Shown here piece after piece: positions 1 to 13,762 of a stretch of 36,163 nt of DNA (the stretch's first letter is position 1; each line of letters opens with the position of its first letter). The DNA comes from Candidatus Poribacteria bacterium (GTDB lineage: Bacteria; Poribacteria; WGA-4E; WGA-3G). The stretch is from positions 1 to 36,163 of the forward strand of contig JAJECK010000063.1 in assembly GCA_022822085.1 (NCBI GenBank), given 5' to 3'. The notes beneath the pieces are model-generated. The model was not told the DNA's origin, ran no database searches, and was given only the letters and a program-made list of their open reading frames with translations. A program made the position numbers and the translations under genes.

Positions 1-2488
1 AATTTGGAATTGAAACTCACATTAGCTGCATAATCACCAGATAGAGTCCTTTTAATCGCACCAATTTGGAATTGAAACCGGATTTTAGGTTGCATAGTTA
101 TAGAGTGCTGTATCTTTTAATCGCACCAATTTGGAATTGAAACCTTGCATGTTCGCTTGCTTATGAGATTGATGTTGAAAACACAACTTTTAATCGCACC
201 AATTTGGAATTGAAACCCGCCAACGCCAAATCCTGATGATCTACAGTAACCTCCTTTTAATCGCACCAATTTGGAATTGAAACTTTGTAAATTTGTTGCC
301 GGTTTCTTCGGCAGTGACATCTTTTAATCGCACCAATTTGGAATTGAAACACTGATAGGACTTACGCCCCTGTAGGATTACTACGTTCCTTTTAATCGCA
401 CCAATTTGGAATTGAAACTCTGTCTTTTTCCCAATCACTTATAGCCGCGCTTGACTTTTAATCGCACCAATTTGGAATTGAAACACAATACTTCAATCTG
501 CTTTCATTGATAGATGAACCGCTTTTAATCGCACCAATTTGGAATTGAAACTCAATTCGAAAAGGTGGTCGTATAGTGCCTCGGTTGTCTTTTAATCGCA
601 CCAATTTGGAATTGAAACACGGAATTAGCAACTGAAAAGGAAGGAAAGATGTATACTTTTAATCGCACCAATTTGGAATTGAAACTTTATTAACTCCTTG
701 CATAAGGGAATCTGCGTTTATCTTTTAATCGCACCAATTTGGAATTGAAACGATTTTGAGGGATCAATAAGGATATGGAGACCTTTAACTTTTAATCGCA
801 CCAATTTGGAATTGAAACTTGGAAGTTGAAATCACTGCGGTTGATATTCTGAACTTTTAATCGCACCAATTTGGAATTGAAACTTTCACTGGCTTCTCTT
901 AACGTCATTCCCGGATTTTCTCTCTTTTAATCGCACCAATTTGGAATTGAAACTTCCCGTTTAGATATTGTATGCATCCACGTTAACGGACTTTTAATCG
1001 CACCAATTTGGAATTGAAACACTGATGATGCTGTAGATGCTTATATATCTGAAATGGAAACTTTTAATCGCACCAATTTGGAATTGAAACCCCTCTGTTT
1101 CAAGAGATTTCAAGATTCGATCGTCATAACTTTTAATCGCACCAATTTGGAATTGAAACGTCGTAAATTTTAGCACAAACTCTTTTGTGTCTTCAGGCTT
1201 TTAATCGCACCAATTTGGAATTGAAACCTGAGGGTTGAATATCATCGCTCGGTTGCACTGCGGTACTTTTAATCGCACCAATTTGGAATTGAAACGTCAA
1301 GTTCCGTAGCAGCCTTTATACCCGCTTCACTTTTAATCGCACCAATTTGGAATTGAAACCTGAGGGTTGAATATCATCGCTCGGTTGCACTGCGGTACTT
1401 TTAATCGCACCAATTTGGAATTGAAACCCAGTTCTGACACAACAGACCGTTTTAGTTACCGCTTTTAATCGCACCAATTTGGAATTGAAACATTACATGC
1501 ACACGGGCTGAACGTAGGTTTGGGAACTTTTAATCGCACCAATTTGGAATTGAAACTGACTTCTCGTACGAAGTTTTGATGGTTCTATCCTTAAACTTTT
1601 AATCGCACCAATTTGGAATTGAAACAGCGGTGGTAAGTATAGGTTCGGTGTAATCGGGGCCCTTTTAATCGCACCAATTTGGAATTGAAACACAACGGAA
1701 TAATCATTATAGAACCTCAAAACGATAACTTTTAATCGCACCAATTTGGAATTGAAACCGGTATCGTACGAATATTAACGGTTTACATGAAGACTTTTAA
1801 TCGCACCAATTTGGAATTGAAACACTATATACCGATGATGTTGATTGAAACCCGCTTTCTTTTAATCGCACCAATTTGGAATTGAAACGCGATTGACAAG
1901 TATGACCACAATGGGGGGCATGATCTTTTAATCGCACCAATTTGGAATTGAAACGTTGCTTGGCGTGATGGTAGATATATCTATCCTACACTTTTAATCG
2001 CACCAATTTGGAATTGAAACCTCACCACACAGGAGAACCCAACGATGCCATATAACTCACTTTTAATCGCACCAATTTGGAATTGAAACGCCGGTTGGTT
2101 TCCCTTTATTCCGTCCCGACGCACGCCTTTTAATCGCACCAATTTGGAATTGAAACGTGCCTACAAGTGGCTTATCGTGTTGTACGTACGGGCTTTTAAT
2201 CGCACCAATTTGGAATTGAAACTGATTTCTTCTTCGGGTTGTCTGTGCAGCTCATTCATCACTTTTAATCGCACCAATTTGGAATTGAAACTGTCAATAT
2301 TATCGGTTTCTGGGCTGACCCGATATCTTTTAATCGCACCAATTTGGAATTGAAACAGAGACGCAACGAGAACGACACCAGAACGAGAAAACTTTTAATC
2401 GCACCAATTTGGAATTGAAACCCAAAGACGCACCACAACCACAGGAGCAAACATGGACCTTTTAATCGCACCAATTTGGAATTGAAAC
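1..2488 (+). CRISPR. CRISPR array 1, 38 repeats (first cut by window edge)
   Basis: A 30-bp repeat, starting CTTTTAATCGC and ending GGAATTGAAAC, recurs 38 times with 37 spacers of about 32-43 bp. The first copy (1-16) is truncated by the window start; the last is 2459-2488. All copies look identical. The ATTGAAAC 3' end is typical of repeats used by type I and type III systems, which suggests + strand transcription with the leader lying left of the window. Two spacers, 1228-1265 and 1360-1397, are identical. The last repeat is intact, although trailer-end repeats often decay. No cas gene is visible, so the subtype is unknown. Short ORFs read across the array are artefacts of the repeat. Confidence 0.98.
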
Positions 2489-2490
2489 TT

Positions 2491-2519
2491 AAAAAACGGT
2501 TTAAACATATTTTTAACCG
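2491..2519 (-). terminator. Minus-strand terminator at the array 1 edge
   Basis: Read on the minus strand, the stem CGGTT/AACCG (with further A-T pairs and a bulge) is followed by TTTTTT. It would stop minus-strand transcripts, such as that of the TPR-like gene at 2728-3135, before they run antisense into array 1. Confidence 0.55.
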
Positions 2520-2640
2520 CAATAAATAGTTCATGACATGATTATCATTTTGTTATTATTTTTCAAACGATTGTTTATATTATTGAAATTAGATTATTAG
2601 ATAATTTTTCTCACATGTATCACATGGAGGTGTAAAATCG

Positions 2641-2862
2641 ATGTTGTTTAAGAAAGAACGTGTTATTATAGAGTCTAAACCTGATGGTTCTAACAAACAT
2701 ATTTATGCTTGTTGCACTGATCAAAAATCAAATTTTTTCCCCATACCAATCAATAAGGTTAAACATCTTTTTAAGGATGAGAAGTCTTTTTCTGAATTTA
2801 TCAGGATTGCCCATGAAATTCTCATGGACTCCAAGAGAGGCAATGAAATCAAAGAACAATGA
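2641..2862 (+). CDS. Hypothetical 73-aa protein
   Basis: I do not recognise the family. The ATG follows a strong ribosome binding site (GGAGGTG at about 2625) at good spacing, which is the main reason to believe this frame. The product is hydrophilic and mixed alpha/beta in composition, with two cysteines (YACC) and no membrane segment. Its 3' part overlaps, in antisense, the 3' end of the TPR-like gene on the other strand, so at least one of the two C-termini is probably not native. It is the first gene after array 1, but nothing in the sequence links it to CRISPR function. Confidence 0.55.
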   Translation: MLFKKERVIIESKPDGSNKHIYACCTDQKSNFFPIPINKVKHLFKDEKSFSEFIRIAHEILMDSKRGNEIKEQ

Positions 2863-3135
2863 ATCCAATTTAACTTTGAATCTGTTATAATAAGCATCTG
2901 ATAATTCTAATGTGTATTCCTTTCTTTCATTAAAGAAGTCGATAGCTCTGTCAAAACCGTATATAGCATTTTCAAAATTACCGAGATTAGCTGCATCTAT
3001 GCCATCATTATTGGCTTTAACAGCCTGATTATAACGATGATCATCATGTAAATCTTGGTTCGTCTCAAGTCGTATATAATCTTTGATTATTGTATCATTT
3101 TTATCCGTTAGGTATTCAGCAGTTTCTTCACTCAT
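2728..3135 (-). CDS. TPR-like protein, possibly with a non-native C-terminus
   Basis: The product is 135 aa. The ATG at 3133-3135 is preferred over the one two codons upstream because AGGAG lies 6 nt before it. Residues of about 30-75 have the pattern of one tetratricopeptide repeat (Ala and Gly at helix contacts, then AIYGFDRAIDFF and AYYNRF), a fold used for protein-protein contact. After the second half-repeat the sequence stops looking like a TPR exactly where the frame runs antisense to the small + strand gene. The gene may therefore be a truncated TPR gene reading through foreign sequence. A promoter (3192-3221) and terminator (2491-2519) on the same strand fit a single-gene unit. Confidence 0.6.
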   Translation of the reverse strand: MSEETAEYLTDKNDTIIKDYIRLETNQDLHDDHRYNQAVKANNDGIDAANLGNFENAIYGFDRAIDFFNERKEYTLELSDAYYNRFKVKLDSLFFDFIASLGVHENFMGNPDKFRKRLLILKKMFNLIDWYGEKI

Positions 3136-3191
3136 AGTCATCTCCTAATTATTAGGTTGGTTGCATATTGTATGTTTGTCTGCTGAAAGTA

Positions 3192-3221
3192 ATTATACTA
3201 TGAAATGATGGTATATGTCCA
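3192..3221 (-). promoter_or_regulatory. Sigma-70-like promoter for the TPR-like gene
   Basis: On the minus strand, TGGACA is separated by 18 nt from a perfect TATAAT, about 55 nt upstream of the chosen start. Confidence 0.55.
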
Positions 3222-3297
3222 GTTGATTTTTGGTATCGACAAGGGTTTTTATGAAACAACTATCATTTTGTGATAATTCGTAAAACGATATTTTTCG

Positions 3298-3326
3298 TTG
3301 ACATGATTTTGAAAATATGTTATAAT
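3298..3326 (+). promoter_or_regulatory. Consensus sigma-70 promoter before the transposase
   Basis: TTGACA, 17 nt, TATAAT: a perfect match to the consensus. It lies about 165 nt upstream of the transposase start. The preceding sequence (TCGTAAAACGATA) resembles a motif found before the coiled-coil gene promoters at 6371 and 7113. Confidence 0.75.
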
Positions 3327-3355
3327 ATTAACATAATGATAGTTTTAAATGTGAA

Positions 3356-3463
3356 AAACGAGGGCGGGCGTGCCCCCGTTTACCATAAAATTCAGAGTTG
3401 CGTTTAATCTGAATGGATTTAGGTTAATATATTTTATATCATTTTCGGAAAAAATGCAACTCT
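3356..3463 (+). promoter_or_regulatory. Structured 5' leader of the transposase
   Basis: Two hairpins lie between promoter and gene. The first (3356-3381) pairs AAACG with CGTTT and GGGC with GCCC, separated by one A-C mismatch, with no T-tract after it. The second pairs 3394-3405 (AGAGTTGCGTTT) with 3452-3463 (AAATGCAACTCT) over 12 bp with one G-T wobble. Such leader hairpins often limit transposase expression; that role is inferred here. Confidence 0.45.
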
Positions 3464-3492
3464 TTTAAATTCAATTTTAAAAGGGTATTTTT

Positions 3493-4377
3493 ATGAATTT
3501 GTTAGAAGTGATGGAACGCTTTCCAGATCAGGAAAGTTGCATTAAATTTCTTGAATCTGTGCGTTGGGGTGATGAACCGAAATGCACACATTGTGGAAGT
3601 AATAGGGTTAACAGTCGTCATGAGCGTAAAGAGAATTTGATTGGTAGATACAATTGTCAGGATTGCAAAGCGTCATTCAAGGTGACGTGCAATACAATTT
3701 TTCACCGAACAAAGATGCCGTTGCAAAAGTGGTTTTTAGCAATATCGTTGATGATCAATGCTAAGAAAAGTTTGTCCAGTCATCAGTTAGCACGTGATTT
3801 GGAATTGAATCAGATGACTGCGTGGAATATGATGCAGAAAATACGTGCGGAAATGTCTAAAAAAAGTAGTGTATTATTGAAGGGTATTATTGAAGCGGAC
3901 GAAACATATATCGGTGGTAAACCTCGTAAGCGTAATAAGCGTGCTGATGATGAGCCTGTGAAGCGTGGTCGTGGGACGAGTAAAACGGCTGTTATTGGTG
4001 CTGTTGAGCGTGGCGGTCATGTAATTGCTAAAGTAGCAGATGATTTGACGGGACAAAGCATAATGAGATTTATCAAAGACGTTGCAAGTGTTGACGAATC
4101 GGAACTTATGACTGACGAATATAGAGGCTATCTCACTATTGGTAAGGAAATGAAGCATCATATCATAAATCATAAGGAACAGTATGTAGATGGTGATGTC
4201 CATACTAATACGATAGAAGGGTTTTGGTCTCTATTGAAACGCGCATGGTATGGAACCCATCACCATTACTCAGTCGTATATACGCCTTTATATGTAGCCG
4301 AGGCCTGCTATAAATATAACTATAGGAACCATGAAAATGTGTTTGATAAGTTTATATCCGATAGTATGATTATATAA
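3493..4377 (+). CDS. IS1595-type (ISXO2-like) transposase
   Basis: The product is 294 aa and looks complete. The N-terminus carries a zinc ribbon (CTHC at 31-34, CQDC at 55-58), followed by a helix-turn-helix at about 96-120. The ISXO2-like RNase-H-fold catalytic domain shows D136 (EADETYIGG), D208 (MTDEYRGY) and the HTNTIEGFWSLLK block (N239, E242, K249). This order is the classic IS1595 family layout. AAAAGGG lies 7 nt before the ATG. I could not define terminal inverted repeats or target duplications with confidence, so the IS boundaries are open. The product would catalyse cut-and-paste or copy transposition and may explain part of the island between the two CRISPR arrays. Confidence 0.9.
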   Translation: MNLLEVMERFPDQESCIKFLESVRWGDEPKCTHCGSNRVNSRHERKENLIGRYNCQDCKASFKVTCNTIFHRTKMPLQKWFLAISLMINAKKSLSSHQLARDLELNQMTAWNMMQKIRAEMSKKSSVLLKGIIEADETYIGGKPRKRNKRADDEPVKRGRGTSKTAVIGAVERGGHVIAKVADDLTGQSIMRFIKDVASVDESELMTDEYRGYLTIGKEMKHHIINHKEQYVDGDVHTNTIEGFWSLLKRAWYGTHHHYSVVYTPLYVAEACYKYNYRNHENVFDKFISDSMII

Positions 4378-4391
4378 TATTTTTGCTTTAT

Positions 4392-4652
4392 TCAACGTTT
4401 TTTCCAATAACCACGTGATATATTTATAACTTTCCCATCTAATTTTAATTGTTTCAAAGCAGCTGAAACATATCTTGGCATTCTCTCAGCTCCACAAGGA
4501 AAGTCGTCTATCCTAATATTTAAAATACCTGCACTATTATTATAGTTAATTCTATCTATAATATTTGATCTTTTCCAAACTTTGTTATCTGACAGAATTT
4601 TAAGTATTGCGATTTTAAGCTTTGTAAAAACTTCCGATTTTAAATCACTCAT
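4392..4652 (-). CDS. Small winged-helix-like protein (Mrr N-domain-like)
   Basis: The product is 86 aa. AGGAGA lies upstream of the ATG, in a leader (AATTAGGAGA) nearly identical to that of the TPR-like gene. The helical N-terminus followed by SAALKQLKLDGKVIN and RGYWKKR resembles the recognition helix and wing of the winged-helix domain found at the N-terminus of Mrr-type proteins. No nuclease domain follows, so a DNA-binding or regulatory role is the most that can be proposed. The gene converges on the transposase, with 14 nt between the stops, and diverges from a short + strand RNA gene at 4753. Confidence 0.55.
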   Translation of the reverse strand: MSDLKSEVFTKLKIAILKILSDNKVWKRSNIIDRINYNNSAGILNIRIDDFPCGAERMPRYVSAALKQLKLDGKVINISRGYWKKR

Positions 4653-4717
4653 AGTAACTTTCTCCTAATTATTTAAATAAGTCACTACTCATATATAAAA
4701 ATCGTATCAAAACCATA

Positions 4718-4746
4718 TTGACAATGATTTTTGTTTGTGATATAAT
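4718..4746 (+). promoter_or_regulatory. Consensus sigma-70 promoter for a short RNA
   Basis: TTGACA, 17 nt, TATAAT, a perfect match. No plausible + strand gene follows before a terminator about 75 nt downstream. Confidence 0.75.
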
Positions 4747-4752
4747 ATTTAA

Positions 4753-4828
4753 ATGTGAGTAATAACTAAATTGGTGTTGTTTATCACTAATGCAGTTAGA
4801 ATGTGATGATTCTAACTGCACTTTTATT
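4753..4828 (+). ncRNA. Putative ~75-nt small RNA with partial CRISPR anti-repeat
   Basis: The RNA is predicted from a consensus promoter (4718-4746) and an intrinsic terminator: TGCAGTTAGAA (4791-4801) pairs with TTCTAACTGCA (4810-4820) and is followed by CTTTTATTT. No ORF fits. The 5' half contains CTAAATTGGTGTTGTT, which can pair with the CRISPR repeat segment AATCGCACCAATTTGG: 9 nt are exact Watson-Crick matches, and G-U wobbles extend the run to 12 pairs. The complementarity is short and may be chance. The terminator hairpin also sits just past the stop codon of the minus-strand 58-aa gene. Confidence 0.5.
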
Positions 4829-5004
4829 TAATCTTCAATTACATTGTTAGTTTCATGGTCAGTTTCATCTTCTGACTTCAAGATTCTCGAAACAGGTCCC
4901 CAAAACAATATAATTAACAGCGTTAACACACATAATCCAACAGTATACCAACCACCTGCTACAAGTGCTGAAAATAATGCAATCCATCCCATAATACATC
5001 CCAT
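4828..5004 (-). CDS. 58-aa single-pass membrane protein
   Basis: This ORF is short but convincing. AAGG lies 7 nt before the ATG. The N-terminal 35 residues are almost entirely hydrophobic (FSALVAGGWYTV, then LCVLTLLIILFWG), followed by a positively charged SRILK and an acidic tail (SEDETDHETNN...IED). The charge pattern suggests one membrane segment with the acidic tail in the cytoplasm. It lies 58 nt downstream of the FGE-like lipoprotein gene on the same strand, so the two may be co-transcribed. I do not recognise the family; similar sizes occur among holin-like proteins, small toxins and accessory membrane subunits. Confidence 0.65.
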   Translation of the reverse strand: MGCIMGWIALFSALVAGGWYTVGLCVLTLLIILFWGPVSRILKSEDETDHETNNVIED

Positions 5005-5062
5005 AGTAAAACCTTGTTATAGTTGTGCGTATAAACACACTTTTTGTTAATTAACTACATAC

Positions 5063-5986
5063 CTATTCTATATCTTTGACGAGTCTTATGCCGATGTCCC
5101 ATGCAGTCCATGGATCACTATCAAAGAATCCACGTCTTGCTACGAGTATACCGTCATGGAAGTTGTTATTATGATCTGTTCCGTATTTTGTATTAGCAGA
5201 AGCGCCTCTAACAACGGTGGTTTTTTCACCGTTATAGATGACGTGCCAGTGTGGTAGTTTGAAGTCGGGTCCGGGTTCAGATATTGTAGGATTTTCGTAT
5301 TGATGTAGGTTATATGCATCGTGTCTATAGTAGTCAATGCACATTTCACTAGCGTTTCCAGACATGTGTTGTAGTCCGTATCCGTTTATATTATCACCCC
5401 AATCTGATTTTGCTGGAACCATTCTACCTTGAGATGTATTTCCAGTTCTGCTCATCCAGTTGAAGTTAGACATTTGTTTGCCTGTATTATAATTGTAAGG
5501 TGGTTCTGTTCCCCATTCATAAGGCATTCGTTCTAGTCCACCGCGTGCAGCGTATTCCCATTCAGCTTCAGTTGGTAATCTTTTTCCGACATATTCGGCA
5601 TAGGCTTTTGCATCGTCATAGGATATGCCGATGATAGGCCAGGATGAATCATAGAAACTTTTGTGATTTGGATGGAATAGTGATCTTTTAACAGCAGTAG
5701 GATATTCCCGACCTGTATCATCACAAAATCCTTTATATTCTTTTACTGATACTTCATATTTATCCATATAAAATGCGTTTATATATACTTCATGTTCAGG
5801 TGCGTTTTTAATTAAGTTATCACCCATAGTAAATTCGCCTGCAGGAATAAGAACCATGTCATCAGGTATTTCTTGCGTGTCCTCAATATCAGGTAATATG
5901 TTATTGACTAATTCATTATCAAAACATCCTTGAATACATACCAAACAAAATAATAATACTAAACACAATCGTTTAAAAGCAAACAT
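5063..5986 (-). CDS. FGE/SUMF1-like lipoprotein, probably non-catalytic
   Basis: The product is 307 aa. The start at 5986 is chosen because GGAGG lies 7 nt upstream and the signal peptide begins there. The signal peptide (MFAFKRLCLVLL...) ends at IQGC, giving a probable lipid-anchored Cys21; Gln before the Gly is unusual. The mature part is one FGE-sulfatase domain: MVLIPAGEFTMGD, KRLPTEAEWEYAARGG, GNASEM and the closing GIRLV. The active-site cysteines near the C-terminus of true formylglycine-generating enzymes are absent (the VVRGASANTKYG region has none), so a binding or structural role is likelier than sulfatase activation, although two sulfatases lie in this window. The 5' leader carries a near-palindromic hairpin (GGGATAGC...GCTATTCC) shared with the small RNA at 6173. 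Confidence 0.85.
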   Translation of the reverse strand: MFAFKRLCLVLLFCLVCIQGCFDNELVNNILPDIEDTQEIPDDMVLIPAGEFTMGDNLIKNAPEHEVYINAFYMDKYEVSVKEYKGFCDDTGREYPTAVKRSLFHPNHKSFYDSSWPIIGISYDDAKAYAEYVGKRLPTEAEWEYAARGGLERMPYEWGTEPPYNYNTGKQMSNFNWMSRTGNTSQGRMVPAKSDWGDNINGYGLQHMSGNASEMCIDYYRHDAYNLHQYENPTISEPGPDFKLPHWHVIYNGEKTTVVRGASANTKYGTDHNNNFHDGILVARRGFFDSDPWTAWDIGIRLVKDIE

Positions 5987-6013
5987 GCCGATTCCTCCAT
6001 TAGTAGTTGTAAG

Positions 6014-6196
6014 GAATAGCTTGCTATCCCCTGTCACTAATAGTAAATCGGCATTGTTATAGATCTGATTGTTGTTTTGAGTACATTTGGTCCTAGAATT
6101 AATTATTTATAGGTCCATTCGCGTACTGATAATTTATTTGACAATCAGATCTTACCGTGCTATACTTAAAGAGACAAGGGATAGCAAAAACTATTC
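6014..6196. repeat. Inverted duplication of a promoter and leader region
   Basis: The FGE-like gene's upstream region on the minus strand (6084 down to 6014) and the + strand stretch 6123-6196 share an ordered series of blocks: GTACT, ACAATCAGATCT, TGC, TACT, GACA, GGGATAGCAA and CTATTC, with small length changes. The two arms diverge from each other. The right arm has a full TTGACA/TATACT promoter; the left arm keeps a weaker version. Confidence 0.6.
6138..6166 (+). promoter_or_regulatory. Sigma-70 promoter for a short RNA
   Basis: TTGACA, 17 nt, TATACT. An intrinsic terminator follows within about 90 nt and there is no ORF. Confidence 0.7.
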
Positions 6197-6252
6197 ACTT
6201 GTTATCAAAACTTGTTGCAGGGTTTTCTTTTGTGGGATAACCCTGCAATTTT
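6173..6252 (+). ncRNA. Putative ~80-nt small RNA sharing the FGE-like mRNA leader hairpin
   Basis: The RNA is bounded by the promoter at 6138-6166 and a terminator whose arms TTGCAGGGTT (6215-6224) and AACCCTGCAA (6239-6248) precede TTTT. The 5' end can fold GGATAG with CTATTC around an A-rich loop. This is the same sense and nearly the same sequence as the hairpin in the leader of the divergent FGE-like mRNA. The RNA could titrate whatever binds that leader; this is inference. Confidence 0.55.
6215..6252 (+). terminator. Intrinsic terminator of the short RNA
   Basis: A 10-bp stem, TTGCAGGGTT/AACCCTGCAA, with a 14-nt loop is followed by a T-run. Confidence 0.7.
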
Positions 6253-6292
6253 ACATCAATATTATAAAACAATCATTATCGTTTGTCAAATT

Positions 6293-6340
6293 AAAATAAG
6301 GGTTTTATTAACCTTGTTAGGTTAATAAAACCCTTATTTT
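6293..6340. terminator. Perfect 22-bp inverted repeat, bidirectional terminator-like
   Basis: Arms 6293-6314 and 6319-6340 are perfect complements around a TGTT loop, with A-rich and T-rich outer ends (AAAATAAGGG.../...CCCTTATTTT). It can terminate from either side. The matching hairpin in copy 2 (7034-7081) keeps the stem through a paired T-A to G-C change. Confidence 0.7.
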
Positions 6341-6370
6341 ATGAATGTATAAATTATCGTAAATGATACG

Positions 6371-6399
6371 TTTACTTTTTGATTGAAGTATGTTATAAT
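6371..6399 (+). promoter_or_regulatory. Promoter of the first coiled-coil gene
   Basis: TTTACT, 17 nt, TATAAT. The inverted repeat ATCGTAAATGATACG lies directly upstream of the -35 box and is conserved in copy 2, so it may be an operator. Confidence 0.6.
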
Positions 6400-6465
6400 A
6401 CATTTGGCAACTAATTAACGTTATATATTTTAGCAGGTTACATTATAAATATGAGGTATATAGTG

Positions 6466-6738
6466 ATGACACAAGAAAAATTCCAAGAGCATGTGCTAAA
6501 AGAATTATCAGAAATAAAGAATCTATTTATCAAAAATGAACAAGATCACTCAACGCTTTCTACTAAAATAAGTGATGTTCATTCAGAACTGTCTACTAAA
6601 ATTGAATCTGTTAGAACGGAAGTTGAATCTGTTAGAACGGAAGTGCATAAGCAATTCAATGTATTTTTGAGATGGTCTATAGGCACGGCTATAGCATCTA
6701 TAAGTATTGTTTTTGTATTAGCAAAATATGTCACATAG
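6466..6738 (+). CDS. Coiled-coil/TM small protein, copy 1 (90 aa)
   Basis: The start at 6466 (MTQEKFQEH) is chosen because GAGGT lies 8 nt upstream; an in-frame ATG at 6451 is possible. An N-terminal helix (FQEHVLKELSEIKNLF) is followed by a heptad-repeat coiled coil (KIESVRTEV, then ESVRTEV again) and one C-terminal membrane span (IGTAIASISIVFVLAKY). The layout resembles DUF1640-like and Bdr-like coiled-coil membrane proteins, but I cannot name a family. Copy 2 at 7208 is nearly identical apart from 11 residues of heptad sequence (SDVHSELSTKI) present only here, so the coiled coil varies in length. The gene lies in a module whose second copy abuts CRISPR array 2. Confidence 0.8.
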   Translation: MTQEKFQEHVLKELSEIKNLFIKNEQDHSTLSTKISDVHSELSTKIESVRTEVESVRTEVHKQFNVFLRWSIGTAIASISIVFVLAKYVT

Positions 6739-6763
6739 CAAAAGGGGTTTTGCTAACCTAAAT

Positions 6764-6915
6764 AACGTGAGCTTGATAAATAATTTAGGGCGGGCCCAAT
6801 AGGTTAAGATCCCTCTTAATAAGGGGATTTAGGAAGTTAAAAACACCGAAATAACGGCTTTTTCTGCTCAATTTGCGCCCATCTTGAACTTCTAAACTTT
6901 TTTCAAACTCACGTT
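6764..6915. mobile_element. 152-bp MITE with 4-bp target duplication
   Basis: The terminal inverted repeats are AACGTGAGCTTGA (6764-6776) and TCAAACTCACGTT (6903-6915), with one mismatch. AAAT flanks both ends (6760-6763, 6916-6919). The otherwise homologous second module copy lacks the insert (CCTAAACAGGTG near 7468-7476), giving an internal empty site. There is no coding capacity. Confidence 0.85.
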
Positions 6916-6918
6916 AAA

Positions 6919-7012
6919 TAGGTGAATGAAGCACACAACCTTTATTTATGTATCAATAATATTCACAAAATGATAATTTTGTCGTTTGTGTCATGAACGT
7001 GTCATTGCGCAG
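6919..7012 (+). promoter_or_regulatory. Orphan CRISPR leader-like sequence
   Basis: This stretch is clearly homologous to the sequence leading into array 2 (7472-7578), sharing AACCTTTATTTATGT and ATAATTTTGT, TTCACAAAA and GTTTGTGTCAT. No CRISPR repeat follows; the next module copy begins instead. Confidence 0.65.
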
Positions 7013-7033
7013 TCTTTTACACTTTGTCAAATT

Positions 7034-7081
7034 AAAATAAGGGGTTTGTCAACCTTGTTAGGTTAATAAACCCCTTATTTT
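7034..7081. terminator. Inverted repeat of module copy 2
   Basis: 22-nt arms (7034-7055, 7060-7081) surround TGTT, as in copy 1. Relative to copy 1 one pair has changed on both sides (T-A to G-C), one is now a G-T wobble and one is mismatched, which suggests partial selection for the stem. Confidence 0.6.
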
Positions 7082-7112
7082 ATGAATGTATAAATTATCG
7101 TAAATGATACGG

Positions 7113-7141
7113 TTGTTTTTTTGATTGAAATATGTTATAAT
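7113..7141 (+). promoter_or_regulatory. Promoter of the second coiled-coil gene
   Basis: TTGTTT, 17 nt, TATAAT, at the same place in the module as 6371-6399. Confidence 0.6.
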
Positions 7142-7207
7142 ATATTTGGCAATTAATTAACGTTATATATTTTAGCAGGTTACATTATGAATATGAGGTA
7201 TATAGTG

Positions 7208-7447
7208 ATGACGCAGGAAAAATTTCAAGAACATGTGCTAAGTGAATTATCGCAAATCAAAGATCTGTTTATTAAAAATGAACAAGACCACTCAATACTT
7301 TCTACTAAGATAGAATCCGTTAGAACGGAAGTTGAATCCGTTAGAACGGAAGTTCATAAGCAGTTTAATGTATTTTTGAGATGGACTATAGGGACAGCTA
7401 TAGCATCTATAAGTATTGTTTTTATATTAGCAAAATATATCACATAA
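7208..7447 (+). CDS. Coiled-coil/TM small protein, copy 2 (79 aa)
   Basis: Paralogue of the gene at 6466, with the same start logic (GAGGT 8 nt upstream of the ATG at 7208; in-frame upstream ATGs at 7187 and 7193). It has the same N-terminal helix, a shorter coiled coil with two ESVRTEV heptads, and the same membrane span (IGTAIASISIVFILAKY). The stop is followed by a CAAAA...TTTTG hairpin and then the array 2 leader, so the gene ends about 130 nt before the first CRISPR repeat. Most differences from copy 1 are silent or conservative, which suggests the protein is under selection. Function unknown. Confidence 0.8.
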   Translation: MTQEKFQEHVLSELSQIKDLFIKNEQDHSILSTKIESVRTEVESVRTEVHKQFNVFLRWTIGTAIASISIVFILAKYIT

Positions 7448-7471
7448 CAAAAAGGGTTTTGCTAACCTAAA

Positions 7472-7578
7472 CAGGTGAATAATACTTAAAACCTTTATTT
7501 ATGTGTCAATAACATTCACAAAACGATAATTTTGTTGTTTGTGTCATAAACTATTCATTGCGTTTTTAACGGTTATAA
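7472..7578 (+). promoter_or_regulatory. Probable leader of CRISPR array 2
   Basis: An AT-rich stretch directly before the first repeat, on the side opposite to the decayed repeats. It contains an inverted repeat, ACAAAA...TTTTGT, that is kept in the orphan copy at 6919-7012. The position and conservation support a leader driving + strand pre-crRNA and spacer integration. Confidence 0.65.
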
Positions 7579-9893
7579 CTTTTAATCGCACCAATTTGGA
7601 ATTGAAACAAATGGTATATCTATATATGCTAATGGACAATTGACTTTTAATCGCACCAATTTGGAATTGAAACTCTATCATTGACAATTCTATTTGACAA
7701 TCTGATAACCTTTTAATCGCACCAATTTGGAATTGAAACTATTGTATAGACTATCCTATAGGATAGGATAAGACTCTTTTAATCGCACCAATTTGGAATT
7801 GAAACTGGAACTACACGCACTGCTGGAGATGTGAGACCGACCTTTTAATCGCACCAATTTGGAATTGAAACCGAAAAGTTCAACATATTTCACCTCATTT
7901 ATTTTTGCACTTTTAATCTCACCAAATTTGAATTGAAACATTTCTGACATATCACCTTAAGACATTAGTTCTTCTCTTTTAATCGCACCAATTTGGAATT
8001 GAAACTAAAACACGCAGCGGGACGTTTTGAAAAGGTGAAAAAACTTTTAATCGCACCAATTTGGAATTGAAACGGAACATATGCAGTATGCTGCACCTGA
8101 CAGTATGGTTCTTTTAATCGCACCAATTTGGAATTGAAACACGATTAACGAATTGATAGCATAAACACAAGATTCACTTTTAATCGCACCAATTTGGAAT
8201 TGAAACCATCATACTCAACATCTGAATCAACAAAAATAGAACTTTTAATCGCACCAATTTGGAATTGAAACTAGTTTGACGGTCAAGCTCAGGATTGCCT
8301 GTGTCTAACTTTTAATCGCACCAATTTGGAATTGAAACGAAAATCAATCGGATCTATCAGTGGTCCGAATGGTTTTACCTTTTAATCGCACCAATTTGGA
8401 ATTGAAACTCCCATCCTCTGCATTTGAAGTTGGCTGTCTTTAGTGCCTTTTAATCGCACCAATTTGGAATTGAAACTTTGCCACTTGAGAAATGGAAAGA
8501 ACTTGACATAACAGTCAACTTTTAATCGCACCAATTTGGAATTGAAACTTGAGGAGAACATGAAAGAACAAATAACACGAACAGACCTTTTAATCGCACC
8601 AATTTGGAATTGAAACAAAGATGGCAAGCATTGCCTCGTTGTACAACTCGCAACTTTTAATCGCACCAATTTGGAATTGAAACCAGTCTAATCGTTTAGA
8701 TAGATTAGCAGAGGAACGCAACTTTTAATCGCACCAATTTGGAATTGAAACTGACTTGCCTGCCTCCACTACGTCCATAGCATCGGGGACTTTTAATCGC
8801 ACCAATTTGGAATTGAAACGAACTGCTTAAGAACATACAGGACGCGCCGAAGGAAACTTTTAATCGCACCAATTTGGAATTGAAACTGAGAACAACCGCG
8901 TCTAAATGGTGCAACTTCATAATTTCTTTTAATCGCACCAATTTGGAATTGAAACTACAGCATCTATCATAAACTTCTTGCCTTTTTTGACCTTTTAATC
9001 GCACCAATTTGGAATTGAAACTTTGATTGATTATGATTGATTACCAACTCGTATTACTTTTAATCGCACCAATTTGGAATTGAAACTTTTTAATTCTGTC
9101 AATTTTATATAAGTTATATATATTCTTTTAATCGCACCAATTTGGAATTGAAACTTACACGTGACCCCGAAGTACGTGAAATTGAAGGCTTTTAATCGCA
9201 CCAATTTGGAATTGAAACTTCGTTTCGTTAACTTCTACTTCACGGGTGAGGTTTCCACTTTTAATCGCACCAATTTGGAATTGAAACGCGTAAAATTGGT
9301 ATGTGACTCGGCAAGTCCTCTACCTTTTAATCGCACCAATTTGGAATTGAAACTACGTATAAGGTTTTGTAATAGATGAGTTCTGGTGGGCTTTTAATCG
9401 CACCAATTTGGAATTGAAACAAACCTTATCATCAGTGATAAAAGGTGCGATTTCCTTCACTTTTAATCGCACCAATTTGGAATTGAAACGATGCATTGAC
9501 TGCTCGGACATAGACATTATAGTTTTCTTTTAATCGCACCAATTTGGAATTGAAACACAGATATAGGTGACTCTGCACTTGTCCGATATGATGTCTTTTA
9601 ATCGCACCAATTTGGAATTGAAACTTATGATTCCTCCCCGTTACCGTTAGTTTCAGGTTTCCTTTTAATCGCACCAATTTGGAATTGAAACATTCCTAAA
9701 GCATATTTTGATAATGCTATTAATAGGAACTTTTAATCGCACCAATTTGGAATTGAAACTTTTTTAGTATGACTTGCCTATAGGCAAATTTTTAAACTTT
9801 TAATCGCACCAATTTGGAATTGAAACAAACATGTTTAATTTCTTTATGTTCAGAATTAGGAAACTTTTAATCGCACCAATTTGGAATTGAAAC
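7579..9893 (+). CRISPR. CRISPR array 2, 35 repeats
   Basis: The same 30-bp repeat as array 1 occurs 35 times, with spacers of about 34-42 bp. Repeat 6 (7910-7939) is altered inside the array (CTTTTAATCTC and ACCAAATTTG) while all others look identical. The leader lies left. The right end passes into a tRNA gene in a spacer position and then into degenerate repeats, as expected for the old end. Two spacers (7740-7775 and 9760-9795) contain perfect palindromes centred on CCTATAGG. Confidence 0.98.
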
Positions 9894-9898
9894 TCTGA

Positions 9899-9971
9899 CT
9901 CCCCGTAGCTCAGTGAACAGAGCATGAGGTTTCTACCCTCAGTGTCACAGGTTTGAATCCTGTCGGGGAGT
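9899..9971 (+). tRNA. tRNA-Arg (UCU), located between CRISPR repeats
   Basis: A complete 73-nt cloverleaf. The acceptor is CTCCCCG/CGGGGAG (7 bp), followed by U8 A9, D stem GCTC/GAGC, anticodon stem TGAGG/CCTCA with loop TTTCTAC (anticodon UCU, reading AGA/AGG), 5-nt variable loop GTGTC, T stem ACAGG/CCTGT with loop TTTGAAT, and discriminator U. CCA is not encoded. U8-A14, G15-C48 and G18-U55 are all possible. The usual G19-C56 pair appears to be A19-U56. The gene lies between an intact CRISPR repeat ending at 9893 and a degenerate one starting at 9974, with only 5 and 2 extra nt. Confidence 0.9.
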
Positions 9972-9973
9972 CC

Positions 9974-10205
9974 CTTTTAATCGCCCGAATTTGTGATAGA
10001 ACCCTCTTCCTCTTATCTTGCTTCCCCCCTTCCCCGCTTTCTTCTAATCGCACCAATTTGGAATTGAAACTCATGATCTTTATAGAAATTCACGCTCTTA
10101 AATGAACTTTTAATCGCACCAATTTGGAATAGAAACGCAAATTGCAGCTTGCATTGACATGTATAATGTGTTAAACTTTTAATCCCACCAATTTGGAAGT
10201 GAAAC
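9974..10205 (+). CRISPR. Degenerate distal repeats of array 2
   Basis: Four repeat-like units: 9974-10003 (strongly changed, ending GATAGAACC), 10041-10070 (one change), 10107-10136 (one change, GGAATAGAAAC) and 10176-10205 (two changes), spaced by 36-39 nt. Spacing is normal, so these were once regular array units. They are now past the tRNA and decaying. Confidence 0.85.
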
Positions 10206-10282
10206 AAGAGATAGCATAAGTGATTATCGTAAAAAACTTCAAAACCTACGGGAGCAACATAAATGAACAGACATAACTCAGG

Positions 10283-10311
10283 TTGGGACAGATCAGGCAT
10301 TGGAGTATAAT
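10283..10311 (+). promoter_or_regulatory. Promoter-like site before the 35-aa ORF
   Basis: TTGGGA, 17 nt, TATAAT, about 28 nt before the ATG at 10339. The -35 match is weak. The sequence GTTGG..GATCA..CATTGGA here is repeated imperfectly within the start of the ORF. Confidence 0.45.
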
Positions 10312-10338
10312 ATATAAAACCATATAGGAGTATAAACA

Positions 10339-10446
10339 ATGCGTCTACGTTGGTCCGGATCAAACATTGGATGTACAATCTTCTCTTTATGTGTCGGGGC
10401 TATAATGGTTGCTATCACCATAAAAATCATCAGATGGATATTATGA
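10339..10446 (+). CDS. 35-aa putative membrane peptide
   Basis: An ATG with AGGAG 8 nt upstream opens a 35-codon frame: a basic N-terminus (MRLRW), then one hydrophobic span (CTIFSLCVGAIMVAITIKII) and RWIL. A promoter-like site precedes it. It stands alone in a 246-nt break within the decayed end of array 2 and ends 5 nt before the next repeat-like unit. Small single-span peptides of this kind include type I toxins and regulatory peptides; nothing more specific can be said. Confidence 0.45.
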   Translation: MRLRWSGSNIGCTIFSLCVGAIMVAITIKIIRWIL

Positions 10447-10451
10447 GCAAC

Positions 10452-10746
10452 CTTTTAATCGCACCAATTTGGAACAGAAACACATCTCCCCGTACCGTCC
10501 ACTTCCAGATAGCGTCTTCCTGTACCATAGTCTTCCAGATTGCGTTTCCCTGTACCGTCCACTTCCAGATTGCGTGCTTCTAATCGCCCCAATTTGGGAT
10601 AGAACCCTCTTCCTCTTATCTTGCTTCCCTCTTCCGTACCGCATTCTTTCAGATTGCGTGCTTCTAATCGCCCCAATTTGGGATAGAAACTTCTTCCCTC
10701 TTCCGTACCGCATTCTTCCAGATTGCGTGCTTCTAATCGCACCAAT
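10452..10746 (+). repeat. Scrambled tail of array 2 with short tandem repeats
   Basis: Repeat-like units lie at 10452-10481, 10577-10606, 10661-10690 and 10730-10746 (truncated). The last three share a diverged form (CTTCTAATCGC, GGGATAGAA). Between them, about 30-bp units containing TACCGTCCACTTCCAGATTGCG-like sequence repeat in tandem (about 10493-10575, again at 10633 and 10700). The stretch after 10577-10606 copies the stretch after 9974-10003 (CTCTTCCTCTTATC...), so this tail grew by duplication, not spacer acquisition. Confidence 0.75.
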
Positions 10747-10835
10747 GATGCTTTTTTATTAACAACATTTCGTGAATAGAAAAAGGCAAAAATGAACCTA
10801 TGATATAATACCTTACGCAAAATTAATTAATATGG

Positions 10836-11000: not shown

Positions 11001-11042
11001 CCTTGTAGACACTTGAAACAAAACATTAACACAGGAGACACA

Positions 11043-11894
11043 ATGGCAACACAAGAACAGGTTGACTTTTTTCAGGAGAACGGATATCTCAGATACGGCA
11101 AAGTCCTAAACAGTGATGACGTGGAAGCTATGCGCGACGGATTGGATACAATCATAGAATTAGAACTCAACGAAGGCGACGATTCATCGCCAGAATTCAA
11201 ATATGGGCATGACCGTAAAGGAGAACAACTCAATAGAGGCAGAGGACATCCACGCGCGATCCACCAATTTGTCAACATGTGGAAACGTGAAGCAAGTTAT
11301 GAAGCAGCCATCCACAATCCGTTAATAGCAGGAACAGCACGCGCACTATTAGAAACACCTGAAGTGCGACTCTGGCATGACCAAGTCATTTCAAAACCAC
11401 CACAAGATAACGGACATTTCGGATTTCATCACGATTTCTTCTTTTGGCCCCTCAGTCCTCCGAATATCGTAAGTTGCTGGCTTGCATTGGATGATGCTAC
11501 GGTAGACAGCGGATGCATGCACGTCATGCCGAAAAGCCACAAAGATGAACGCTTCTCAGTTGAAGCAAAAGCTGCCTTCAATGCGGAAATAGCAAAGGCA
11601 CAAGAAGAAGGACGCGAACCACCCCCGAACCCCTGGACAGAAAGACGGAGTTTAGATATAAGTCACGGCACTCCAGTAGAGTTGAAAGCAGGCGAGTGTA
11701 TGTTTCATCACTGCCTAAATTGGCACGGCACACCTCCGAATGTAACTGACCATCAACGTCGCGCATTTGTCATGATCTTTATGGCACAAGGTGTACGATA
11801 CAACAACGCACAATCACCAGGACATGTCCTTGTGCCGACTATTGAGGTAGAAGATGGAGAACCCCTTGTCGGTGATGCGTTTCCGGTAGCATAA
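11043..11894 (+). CDS. Phytanoyl-CoA dioxygenase (PhyH) family protein
   Basis: The product is 283 aa. The start at 11043 is chosen for the AGGAG upstream and the typical opening (TQEQVDFFQENGYL). This is a non-haem Fe(II)/2-oxoglutarate oxygenase of the double-stranded beta-helix fold. The iron ligands are visible as H129-x-D131 (FHHDFFFW) and H228 (NWHGTPPN), with R239/R240 to bind 2-oxoglutarate. It is probably cytoplasmic, as no signal peptide is seen. The substrate cannot be told from sequence; the family hydroxylates many small molecules. It opens a co-directional run with an ATPase, a DUF4276-like protein and two sulfatases, and is preceded by a 67-bp tandem repeat that may regulate it. 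Confidence 0.92.
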   Translation: MATQEQVDFFQENGYLRYGKVLNSDDVEAMRDGLDTIIELELNEGDDSSPEFKYGHDRKGEQLNRGRGHPRAIHQFVNMWKREASYEAAIHNPLIAGTARALLETPEVRLWHDQVISKPPQDNGHFGFHHDFFFWPLSPPNIVSCWLALDDATVDSGCMHVMPKSHKDERFSVEAKAAFNAEIAKAQEEGREPPPNPWTERRSLDISHGTPVELKAGECMFHHCLNWHGTPPNVTDHQRRAFVMIFMAQGVRYNNAQSPGHVLVPTIEVEDGEPLVGDAFPVA

Positions 11895-11912: not shown

Positions 11913-13169
11913 ATGCAGGATTCCACGTTTATTAAGAGAGTTATTCTGAAAAACTATAAGAGTATTGCAGCATGCAATGTGCAGTTGCAGCCTCTGACGT
12001 TTCTCGTAGGTCGCAACGGGTCGGGCAAAAGCAATTTCCTTGATGCATTGCGATTTGTTGCTGATGCGTTGAATTACTCTTTAGAGCACGCTATACGCGA
12101 TCGTGGCGGTATCAATGATGTCCGTCGTCGTTCTCGTGGACACCCAAACCATTTTAGCATTCGACTGGAGTTTGCTCTACCCAACGGTTCATCAGGACAC
12201 TACGCCTTCCGAATCGGAACACGTTCCCCAGGCGGTTATGAAGTTCAAACAGAAGAGTGTATATTGTATTGTAAGGAACTTTTTACACATGAGGTATATT
12301 TCCGTGTTGATAGCGGAAATGTAATGGATACAAGTCTGGAAGTTGCCCCAGCGGCTGCGCCTGATCGGCTCTATTTGGTAAATGCTTCAGGATTGCCTGA
12401 ATTTCGACCTGTCTACGAAGCATTTTCTCAGATGGGATTTTACAATCTGAATCCAGATATAATCCGAGAACTGCAAGCACCAGACCCTCGCAAGGTACTT
12501 ACACGAGATGGGGGAAATCTCACGAGTATCTTTGCTCAACTGCCACAAACCGTACAGGAAAGCATTGAGGAATATTTAGCGGCACTCGTTCCTGGAGTGC
12601 ATAAAGTAAATGTCAAAGAGTTAGGGCATAAGGAAACACTGGAATTCAGACAGGATGTAGCAGGTGACGAATACACATGGAGATTTCTTGCAAATAACAT
12701 GTCCGATGGCACACTCCGTGTGTTAGGAATCTTGGTTGCACTGTTTCAAGGAGATGGAGTCAAACAAGATAGCGTGCCTCTAGTAGGAATTGAAGAACCA
12801 GAAATCGCACTCCATCCTGCAGCAGCCGGTGTATTACTTGATGCACTTCGGGATGCTGCTTACAAAAGACAGGTCTTAATCACTAGCCACAGTCCAGACC
12901 TCCTTGATGATAAACACTTGGATGTGAACTCAATCCTCGCTGTTGAAGCACATGACGGAAATACAATTGTTGCACAAGTAGACAAAGTAGGTAAATCTGT
13001 TTTACATGATCAGTTATGTACACCGGGTGAATATTTACGACTTGATCAATTTCAACCTGATCTTACCCAAATACCTAAAGGTCATGGTCCGAAAGTAAGA
13101 CAACTTGTACTATTTGATCCAAACGATAGCGATCCTTACAAAATAAAGAAAAAAGGAACGCCTGAATGA
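11913..13169 (+). CDS. AAA_21-type SMC/OLD-like ATPase
   Basis: The product is 418 aa from the ATG at 11913 (a TTG at 11901 would add four residues; neither has a strong ribosome binding site). The ABC-like ATPase order is clear: FIKRVILKNYKSI, Walker A GRNGSGKS at 33-40, signature MSDGTLR, Walker B VGIEEPEIALHP and the ITSHSPDLL switch. There is no long coiled coil and no fused nuclease domain, unlike OLD. The stop overlaps the next gene (ATGA at 13166-13169), so the pair is translationally coupled. Such ATPases next to small Toprim-like partners act in several phage-defence systems (OLD, PARIS); a defence role here is inference. Confidence 0.88.
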   Translation: MQDSTFIKRVILKNYKSIAACNVQLQPLTFLVGRNGSGKSNFLDALRFVADALNYSLEHAIRDRGGINDVRRRSRGHPNHFSIRLEFALPNGSSGHYAFRIGTRSPGGYEVQTEECILYCKELFTHEVYFRVDSGNVMDTSLEVAPAAAPDRLYLVNASGLPEFRPVYEAFSQMGFYNLNPDIIRELQAPDPRKVLTRDGGNLTSIFAQLPQTVQESIEEYLAALVPGVHKVNVKELGHKETLEFRQDVAGDEYTWRFLANNMSDGTLRVLGILVALFQGDGVKQDSVPLVGIEEPEIALHPAAAGVLLDALRDAAYKRQVLITSHSPDLLDDKHLDVNSILAVEAHDGNTIVAQVDKVGKSVLHDQLCTPGEYLRLDQFQPDLTQIPKGHGPKVRQLVLFDPNDSDPYKIKKKGTPE

Positions 13170-13762
13170 AGGTCAATATTGGATGTGTCGTTGAGGGAAA
13201 AGGAGAGGTTAAAGCCGTACCAATATTAATTCGACGTGTCGCAGCAATCCATTACCCAGAACTTGACCTTGACATTCCTACTCCCATCCGATTTCCGAGA
13301 AATAAGGTGCTTCAAACAGGTGAACTTGAACATGCAGTTGGAATAGCAAGTCGGAGCATCAGCAAACAAGGTGCTATACTTATTATTCTTGACAGTGATG
13401 ATGACTGTCCGGCAGAATTGGCTCCGGCATTACTACATCGGATTTCCCCAGTTTTTCACAATATTCCGATTGCTGTTGTCCTCGCTAAACATGAATTTGA
13501 GTCTTGGTTTCTCGCATCAGCGGAATCTCTACGTGGGAAAAGAGGATTAAAAAGTGATATTAATACGCCAGAAAATCCTGAAGCAATCCGTGGAGCAAAA
13601 GAATGGTTGCGTCGCAGAATGCAAAGAGGTAAGACATATAGTGTTACACAGGACCAACCAGCACTTGCAGCACAATTTAACCTTGAACAAGCACGGCAAG
13701 CAGATTCGTTCGACAAATGCTACCGAGATATAGTCCGTCTCCTTGAAGAATTGCAACAGTGA
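13166..13762 (+). CDS. DUF4276-like protein, partner of the ATPase
   Basis: The product is 198 aa, overlapping the ATPase stop by 4 nt. The opening CVVEGKGEVKAVPILIRR, then ILIILDSDDDCP and VVLAKHEFESWFLAS, match the DUF4276 pattern, which resembles a Toprim fold: a Glu in the first loop and a DSDDD acidic cluster that could hold a metal. A nuclease or primase-like function in the coupled ATPase pair is plausible but not shown. The C-terminus is helical and charged. It is followed after 52 nt by a sulfatase gene with its own ribosome binding site. Confidence 0.8.
   Translation: MKVNIGCVVEGKGEVKAVPILIRRVAAIHYPELDLDIPTPIRFPRNKVLQTGELEHAVGIASRSISKQGAILIILDSDDDCPAELAPALLHRISPVFHNIPIAVVLAKHEFESWFLASAESLRGKRGLKSDINTPENPEAIRGAKEWLRRRMQRGKTYSVTQDQPALAAQFNLEQARQADSFDKCYRDIVRLLEELQQ

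What the first reader, a model, noticed from the sequence alone, without database searches (positions are those of the whole stretch)
9894..9973. A complete tRNA-Arg gene sits in the spacer position of a CRISPR array
Between an intact repeat (ending 9893) and a degenerate one (starting 9974) the 80-nt insert is almost exactly one tRNA gene: 5 nt, 73-nt cloverleaf, 2 nt. Normal spacers here are 34-42 nt. Intact array units lie before it and decaying ones after it. If pre-crRNA is read from the left, RNase P and RNase Z would cut the transcript at the tRNA, setting the functional end of the array and releasing an arginine tRNA for AGA/AGG codons. It may also mark an ancient integration point, or a tRNA captured from a phage or plasmid.
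Basis: partly seen in the sequence, partly recalled or inferred. Interest (0 to 1): 0.85.

Follow-up and report, generated by a model that had tools for sequence, protein, structure and literature searches.

The report
Foreign tRNA gene inside CRISPR array
A complete, well-formed arginine tRNA gene, unlike the bacterium's own and most like phage ones, sits where a spacer should be near the old, decaying end of a CRISPR array; it looks like a one-off capture by recombination, with no evidence yet that it does anything for the array.

Summary
The gene is structurally intact, with A19-U56 replacing G19-C56. It is not the host's: the genome has a normal tRNA-Arg(UCU) elsewhere, and this anticodon-arm type occurs in none of 84 other genomes of the phylum but in 28 of 30 viral tRNA-Arg(UCU) genes found by a D-loop search. 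In nine congeners the genes flanking this CRISPR-Cas locus are neighbours with no tRNA between them, so it is no ancient anchor. The repeat on its right is a copy of a unit 0.6 kb further into the tail, which also holds a 246-nt insert and dispersed repeats. Capture by recombination in a decaying leader-distal tail fits better than normal spacer acquisition. A scan of 84,980 species genomes found no second case of the type searched. RNase P/Z punctuation of pre-crRNA is possible but untested. Best call: a rare, private capture of a foreign tRNA gene, function unproven.

The parts
7579..9893 (+). Second half of the CRISPR array: 35 repeats of 30 nt (CTTTTAATCGCACCAATTTGGAATTGAAAC), spacers 34-42 nt
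9864..9893 (+). Perfect CRISPR repeat directly left of the tRNA
9894..9898 (+). 5 nt TCTGA between repeat and tRNA; its last two bases (GA) can pair with U73 and C74 and lengthen the acceptor stem to 9 bp
9899..9971 (+). tRNA-Arg(UCU) gene, intact cloverleaf, C1-G72, A19-U56, A20/C35/U36 present, U73, no encoded CCA
9974..10003 (+). Degenerate repeat (6 mismatches) right of the tRNA; with the next ~23 nt it is a diverged copy of 10577-10635
10004..10205 (+). Tail units beyond the tRNA: pyrimidine-rich spacer, then repeats at 10041, 10107 and 10176 (1-2 mismatches) with 36- and 39-nt spacers
10206..10451 (+). 246-nt non-standard insert in a spacer position, with promoter-like site 10283-10311 and a 35-aa hydrophobic ORF at 10339-10446; found in no other held genome of the phylum
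10452..10747 (+). Degenerate repeats (10452, 10577, 10661, partial terminal repeat ~10731-10747) interleaved with copies of a dispersed genomic repeat
1..2488 (+). First part of the array in the window (37 repeats); probably continues the array at the end of contig C88, next to the type I-B/III-A cas genes
2489..7578 (.). About 5-kb insertion (IS1595-family transposase and other genes, imperfect inverted repeats at its ends) that splits the array
11040..11894 (+). PhyH-family gene that bounds the CRISPR-Cas locus on the right; neighbour of an SDR gene in relatives without the locus

Best explanation
The 80-nt insert is a complete, foreign-type tRNA-Arg(UCU) gene, probably from a phage or other mobile element, that ended up between two repeats of the old, leader-distal tail of a large type I-B/III-A CRISPR array. 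It most likely got there by recombination or template switching in the decaying tail rather than by ordinary Cas1-Cas2 spacer integration. It is today mainly a passenger. If the tail is transcribed, RNase P and RNase Z could release a tRNA from the pre-crRNA, but nothing shows that this matters to the cell or the array. Shown: the gene, its position, its intact fold, that the lineage's own tRNA-Arg genes are different, and that the site in relatives without the CRISPR-Cas locus has no tRNA. Inferred: phage origin, the recombination route and the lack of function.
For: Intact tRNA by two methods, cloverleaf optimal, with G19-C56 replaced by A19-U56, a compensated change also seen in L128 and in the tRNAs of G025/G028. 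Only 60-70% identical to the host's own tRNA-Arg genes compared, but up to 81% to viral tRNA-Arg(UCU). The UUCUACC anticodon arm is absent from the other 84 genomes of the phylum, with the positive control found, and present in 28 of 30 IMG/VR tRNA-Arg(UCU) genes and in phage ctEqG8, found by BLAST without that selection. The host has an ordinary tRNA-Arg(UCU) in a Pro-Arg-His-Arg-Lys-Leu cluster. Recombination: the right repeat and following ~23 nt copy a unit at 10577; the two flanking repeats differ at 6 of 30 positions, unlike the duplicated repeat that Cas1-Cas2 leaves; the length is far outside the spacer range; the same tail holds other odd inserts of 246, 95 and 54 nt. SDR and PhyH are neighbours without a tRNA in nine congeners.
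Against: Overall identity does not separate phage from bacterial sources: tRNA-Arg genes of other families of the phylum also reach 79-81%. No source element was found in IMG/VR with a tight pattern. The nearly exact fit of the insert to a tRNA (5+73+2 nt) is not what random recombination predicts and hints at selection or at an RNA-based route. The intact tertiary pairs argue against long neutral decay.
Confidence: 0.62

Rival explanations
1. Aberrant spacer acquisition: Cas1-Cas2 integrated an over-long 80-nt prespacer that came from a phage tRNA gene, or from reverse-transcribed tRNA, and the right repeat decayed afterwards.
For: Spacers derived from viral tRNA genes exist: a 32-bp viral tRNA fragment is a spacer in Thermococcus nautili (PMC9897764). 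The insert begins right after a perfect repeat and is close to one whole tRNA.
Against: 80 nt lies far outside the 34-43 range; flanking repeats differ at 6 positions and the right one shares its changes with tail copies at 10577 and 10661; the genuine spacer in T. nautili is of normal length; Cas1 here is a plain 331-aa Cas1 without a reverse transcriptase part.
Confidence: 0.15
2. Functional punctuation: the tRNA is kept because RNase P and RNase Z cut the pre-crRNA there, separating useful units from the degenerate tail and releasing a usable tRNA-Arg.
For: Same strand as the repeats; intact fold with ArgRS elements A20, C35, U36 (sequence); the boundary between perfect and degenerate repeats lies at the tRNA. 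Engineered tRNA-guide arrays work this way (own knowledge; such designs appear).
Against: Found in one genome only: no match in 84 other genomes of the phylum and none in a scan of 84,980 species genomes. Near-intact units continue beyond it. A Cas6b already processes the repeats. U73 is unusual for tRNA-Arg and can pair with A-1, giving a 9-bp acceptor stem that may disturb RNase P, RNase Z and charging. The only recognisable leader lies beyond the 5-kb insertion.
Confidence: 0.08
3. Beneficial accessory tRNA: the gene backs up tRNA-Arg(UCU) against depletion, for example by a CreT-type RNA toxin of the CRISPR locus or a tRNA-cutting defence or phage nuclease.
For: H. hispanica CreT sequesters exactly tRNA-Arg(UCU) and over-expressed tRNA relieves CreT toxicity (PMC8501985). 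This locus has a degenerate repeat cluster between cas6b and cas8b, a known creTA position, and an HEC-01-like AAA/DUF4276 pair near by.
Against: No CreT-like ORF with a strong SD and tandem AGA codons was seen by eye in that interval; AGA is a common Arg codon here; the AAA/DUF4276 pair is conserved in congeners that lack the tRNA.
Confidence: 0.07
4. Assembly artefact: reads from a tRNA-bearing element carrying the same repeat were joined to this array.
For: Draft assembly in 158 contigs, with a 30-nt repeat present over 100 times.
Against: The order SDR - cas - array - tail - PhyH fits the synteny of relatives and the deletion scar in G014. Both sides of the tRNA are repeats of this array, and the right side is unique sequence, so a repeat abuts the tRNA in any case. 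The repeat family was not found in IMG/VR.
Confidence: 0.04
5. Integration scar: the tRNA is the attachment site of a mobile element that brought the CRISPR-Cas locus.
For: tRNA genes are frequent integration sites, and this one lies near the right end of the locus.
Against: A complete tRNA with repeats on both sides, no second copy in the genome, and no tRNA between the flanking genes in nine congeners.
Confidence: 0.04

Closest known systems
Viral tRNA gene fragment as spacer 10 of the Thermococcus nautili 30-1 CRISPR array (PMC9897764)
   Same: tRNA sequence of probable viral origin inside a CRISPR array
   Different: There a 32-bp fragment (T-arm and half acceptor stem) in a normal-length spacer; here a complete, foldable 73-nt gene in an 80-nt slot
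Phage-encoded tRNA-Arg(UCU) genes (e.g. Ruegeria phage vB_RpoS-V10, Cobetia phage Carin-5, phage ctEqG8)
   Same: AGTGRACA-type D-loop or C1-G72 acceptor or UUCUACC anticodon arm; up to about 81% identity in IMG/VR
   Different: Those two named first encode CCA and have G73; none found is a close source of this copy
CreTA modules (CRISPR-regulated toxin-antitoxin; PMC8501985)
   Same: Link between a type I-B locus, degenerate repeats and tRNA-Arg(UCU)
   Different: CreTA carries a toxin RNA that sequesters the tRNA, not a tRNA gene; no creT was seen here
Engineered tRNA-guide RNA arrays
   Same: tRNA in the same transcript as guide units, cut by RNase P/Z
   Different: Designed; here a single tRNA in a decayed array tail with Cas6b available and no evidence of processing

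Membership tests
Functional bacterial tRNA-Arg(UCU) gene | Cloverleaf with covariance-model score over threshold | tested here: met
Functional bacterial tRNA-Arg(UCU) gene | Tertiary pairs and ArgRS identity bases (8-14, 15-48, 18-55, 19-56; A20, C35, U36) | tested here: met
   Read from the sequence; 19-56 is A-U instead of G-C
Functional bacterial tRNA-Arg(UCU) gene | Discriminator A/G and encoded or addable CCA | tested here: inconclusive
   U73, no encoded CCA; the host's own tRNA-Arg genes also lack CCA
Functional bacterial tRNA-Arg(UCU) gene | Transcription, processing and charging | not testable with these tools
   needs RNA data
Ordinary CRISPR spacer acquired by Cas1-Cas2 | Length within the array's spacer range | tested here: not met
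   80 nt against 34-43
Ordinary CRISPR spacer acquired by Cas1-Cas2 | Flanked by copies of the same repeat | tested here: not met
   left repeat perfect, right with 6 mismatches, several shared with tail copies
Ordinary CRISPR spacer acquired by Cas1-Cas2 | Matches a foreign element | tested here: inconclusive
   phage-type tRNA, no exact source
Type I-B / III-A CRISPR-Cas locus | cas6b, cas8b, cas7, cas5, cas3, cas1, cas2 and cas10/csm genes next to an array with this repeat | tested here: met
Type I-B / III-A CRISPR-Cas locus | That the array of contig C88 and the arrays of the window are one array | tested here: inconclusive
   fits synteny and the contig ends, but the contigs are not joined
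CreTA module | creT: SD, start, tandem rare codons, stem-loop | tested here: inconclusive
   none seen by eye between cas6b and cas8b or in the array tail; no systematic search
tRNA att site of an integrative element | tRNA at the element border with a partial copy at the other end | tested here: not met

The most novel reading that the evidence does not exclude
A naturally tRNA-punctuated CRISPR array: the embedded tRNA is processed by RNase P/Z from the pre-crRNA, marks the end of the useful array and supplies a functional foreign tRNA, and the array tail can hold whole small genes (tRNA, 35-aa ORF) between repeats like cassettes.
Probability: 0.07. Interest if true: 0.75.

Novelty: new variant of a known kind. 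Interest (0 to 1): 0.4.

Why it matters
A partial viral tRNA in a CRISPR spacer has been reported and called the first of its kind; a complete, structurally sound tRNA gene in a spacer slot has not, as far as the held literature shows. If it is expressed it would be a natural counterpart of engineered tRNA-guide arrays. If it is not, it still shows that decayed array tails can trap whole small genes by recombination, and that tRNA annotation pipelines will count such copies as ordinary host tRNAs.

Tried and rejected
Ancient tRNA anchor: rejected by synteny. A need for AGA/AGG decoding: rejected, own tRNA-Arg(UCU) and (CCU) exist and AGA is common. Homologous tRNA in relatives' arrays: none in 84 genomes. 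The same junction elsewhere: 12 hits in genome contigs and 2 in IMG/VR, all single GAATTGAAAC matches with no array. Repeat-bearing viral contigs as a vehicle: none. Tight pattern for a source virus: none. CreT-like ORF, or tail spacers matching the insert's promoter: none seen. One search was a faulty pattern that missed its positive control; one search replaces it. Literature searches gave only the T. nautili fragment.

Full report
Observation. The window holds a CRISPR array with the 30-nt repeat CTTTTAATCGCACCAATTTGGAATTGAAAC. Between the perfect repeat 9864-9893 and a degenerate one at 9974-10003 lie 80 nt: TCTGA, a 73-nt tRNA, CC. ARAGORN and Rfam agree on tRNA-Arg(UCU), 60.5 bits, E 7e-11. 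The 109 ordinary spacers of the array are 34-43 nt long.

The gene itself. The fold is the cloverleaf. Bases expected for tertiary contacts and for arginyl-tRNA synthetase (A20, C35, U36) are present by inspection. G19-C56 is replaced by A19-U56, a compensated change that also occurs in tRNA-Arg(UCU) of G025/G028 and in viral locus L128, so its ancestor was under selection as a tRNA. Odd points: U73 instead of A/G, C1-G72, no encoded CCA, and two extra possible pairs (A-1 with U73, G-2 with C74) that lengthen the acceptor stem to 9 bp.

Whose tRNA is it? The genome has 48 tRNA matches, including an ordinary tRNA-Arg(UCU) in a Pro-Arg-His-Arg-Lys-Leu cluster, a cluster also seen in other families of the phylum. 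The CRISPR copy is only 60-70% identical to the host's own tRNA-Arg genes compared. No close copy exists in the other 84 genomes held of the phylum, and its anticodon arm type (TTCTACC) is found in none of them, with the positive control found. In IMG/VR a D-loop-based pattern gave 30 tRNA-Arg(UCU) genes, 28 of them with TTCTACC, best identity 81%; that pattern fixed the D-loop and base 39 but left base 38 free. Phage ctEqG8, found by BLAST without that selection, has almost the same anticodon arm. Overall identity alone does not separate phage from bacterial sources (79-81% for both), so phage origin is likely, not proven.

Where it sits. Contig C88 carries SDR, cas6b, a degenerate repeat cluster, cas8b, cas7, cas5, cas3, cas10 and csm genes, cas4, cas1, cas2, then a leader-like stretch and 40 repeats up to the contig end. 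The window begins inside a repeat, has 37 repeats, an about 5-kb insertion with an IS1595 transposase and imperfect inverted end repeats, 35 more repeats, the tRNA, a degenerate tail and then a PhyH gene. In nine congeners SDR and PhyH are neighbours (50-180 nt apart in eight, 1.2 kb in one) with neither repeats nor a tRNA. In G014 the start of cas4 is fused to a terminal repeat followed by the same PhyH upstream sequence, a deletion scar of the same locus. So the CRISPR-Cas locus is one insertion between SDR and PhyH, C88 and the window are very probably contiguous, and the tRNA lies at the old, leader-distal end, about 1.1 kb from PhyH.

How it got there. The degenerate repeat right of the tRNA and the following ~23 nt are a diverged copy of a unit at 10577 (88% over 72 nt). 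It shares that unit's changes, so it is not simply a decayed twin of the left repeat. The tail also contains a 246-nt insert with a promoter-like site and a 35-aa hydrophobic ORF and copies of a dispersed genomic repeat. The tail has thus been reshuffled by recombination, and I favour that route for the tRNA too. Over-long Cas1-Cas2 acquisition is the main rival. The near-exact fit of the 80-nt insert to one tRNA remains unexplained by random recombination.

Function. On the same strand as the array, the tRNA could be cut from a pre-crRNA by RNase P and RNase Z. Against an important role: only one genome has it, good repeats continue beyond it, a Cas6b exists, the recognisable leader lies beyond the 5-kb insertion, and U73 with a 9-bp stem may hinder processing or charging. 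AGA is a common Arg codon (11.6 per thousand), so supply of this tRNA is not an obvious need. The known link between type I-B loci and tRNA-Arg(UCU) is the CreT toxin (PMC8501985); no CreT-like gene was seen here, though the search was by eye.

Known precedents. A 32-bp viral tRNA fragment is a normal-length spacer in Thermococcus nautili, described as the first tRNA fragment in a CRISPR array (PMC9897764). I found no report of a complete one; the library holds only open papers. My scan of 84,980 species genomes covered repeats ending GAATTGAAAC followed within 30 nt by a same-strand tRNA with TAGCTCAG; other repeat types and orientations were not covered.

Verdict. Real, unusual and probably a private capture of a foreign tRNA gene in a decaying array tail. 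Interest is moderate; it would rise sharply if RNA data showed processing.

Noticed in passing
L064:3390-4000 (contig C88 13390-14000): Between cas6b and cas8b: about eight strongly degenerate repeats with an altered 3' handle (GGAATCAAC/GGAATCAATAC), a duplicated ~60-nt spacer-like unit, and, further on, an ORF resembling a cas8b N-terminal remnant; the position where creTA sits in H. hispanica.
   Followed up: partly
window 10206-10451: 246-nt insert between two repeats with a promoter-like site, a Shine-Dalgarno-like AGGAG and a 35-aa hydrophobic ORF (10339-10446); unique among 85 genomes.
   Followed up: partly
window 2489-7578: About 5-kb insertion with an IS1595-family transposase, an FGE-sulfatase-like gene and a tandem duplication (6282-7009 / 7023-7562) that splits the CRISPR array.
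   Followed up: partly
L157 (G014), about 220-380 nt upstream of PhyH: First ~81 nt of cas4 fused to a terminal CRISPR repeat: a deletion of the rest of cas4 through the array in a related genome, whose cas1 lies elsewhere in the locus.
   Followed up: partly
window 11916-13759: AAA ATPase plus DUF4276 pair matching the PADLOC HEC-01A/HEC-01B candidate defence models, conserved next to PhyH in congeners.
   Followed up: partly
window 1228-1265 and 1360-1397: The same 38-nt spacer (CTGAGGGTTGAATATCATCGCTCGGTTGCACTGCGGTA) occurs twice in the array.
   Followed up: no
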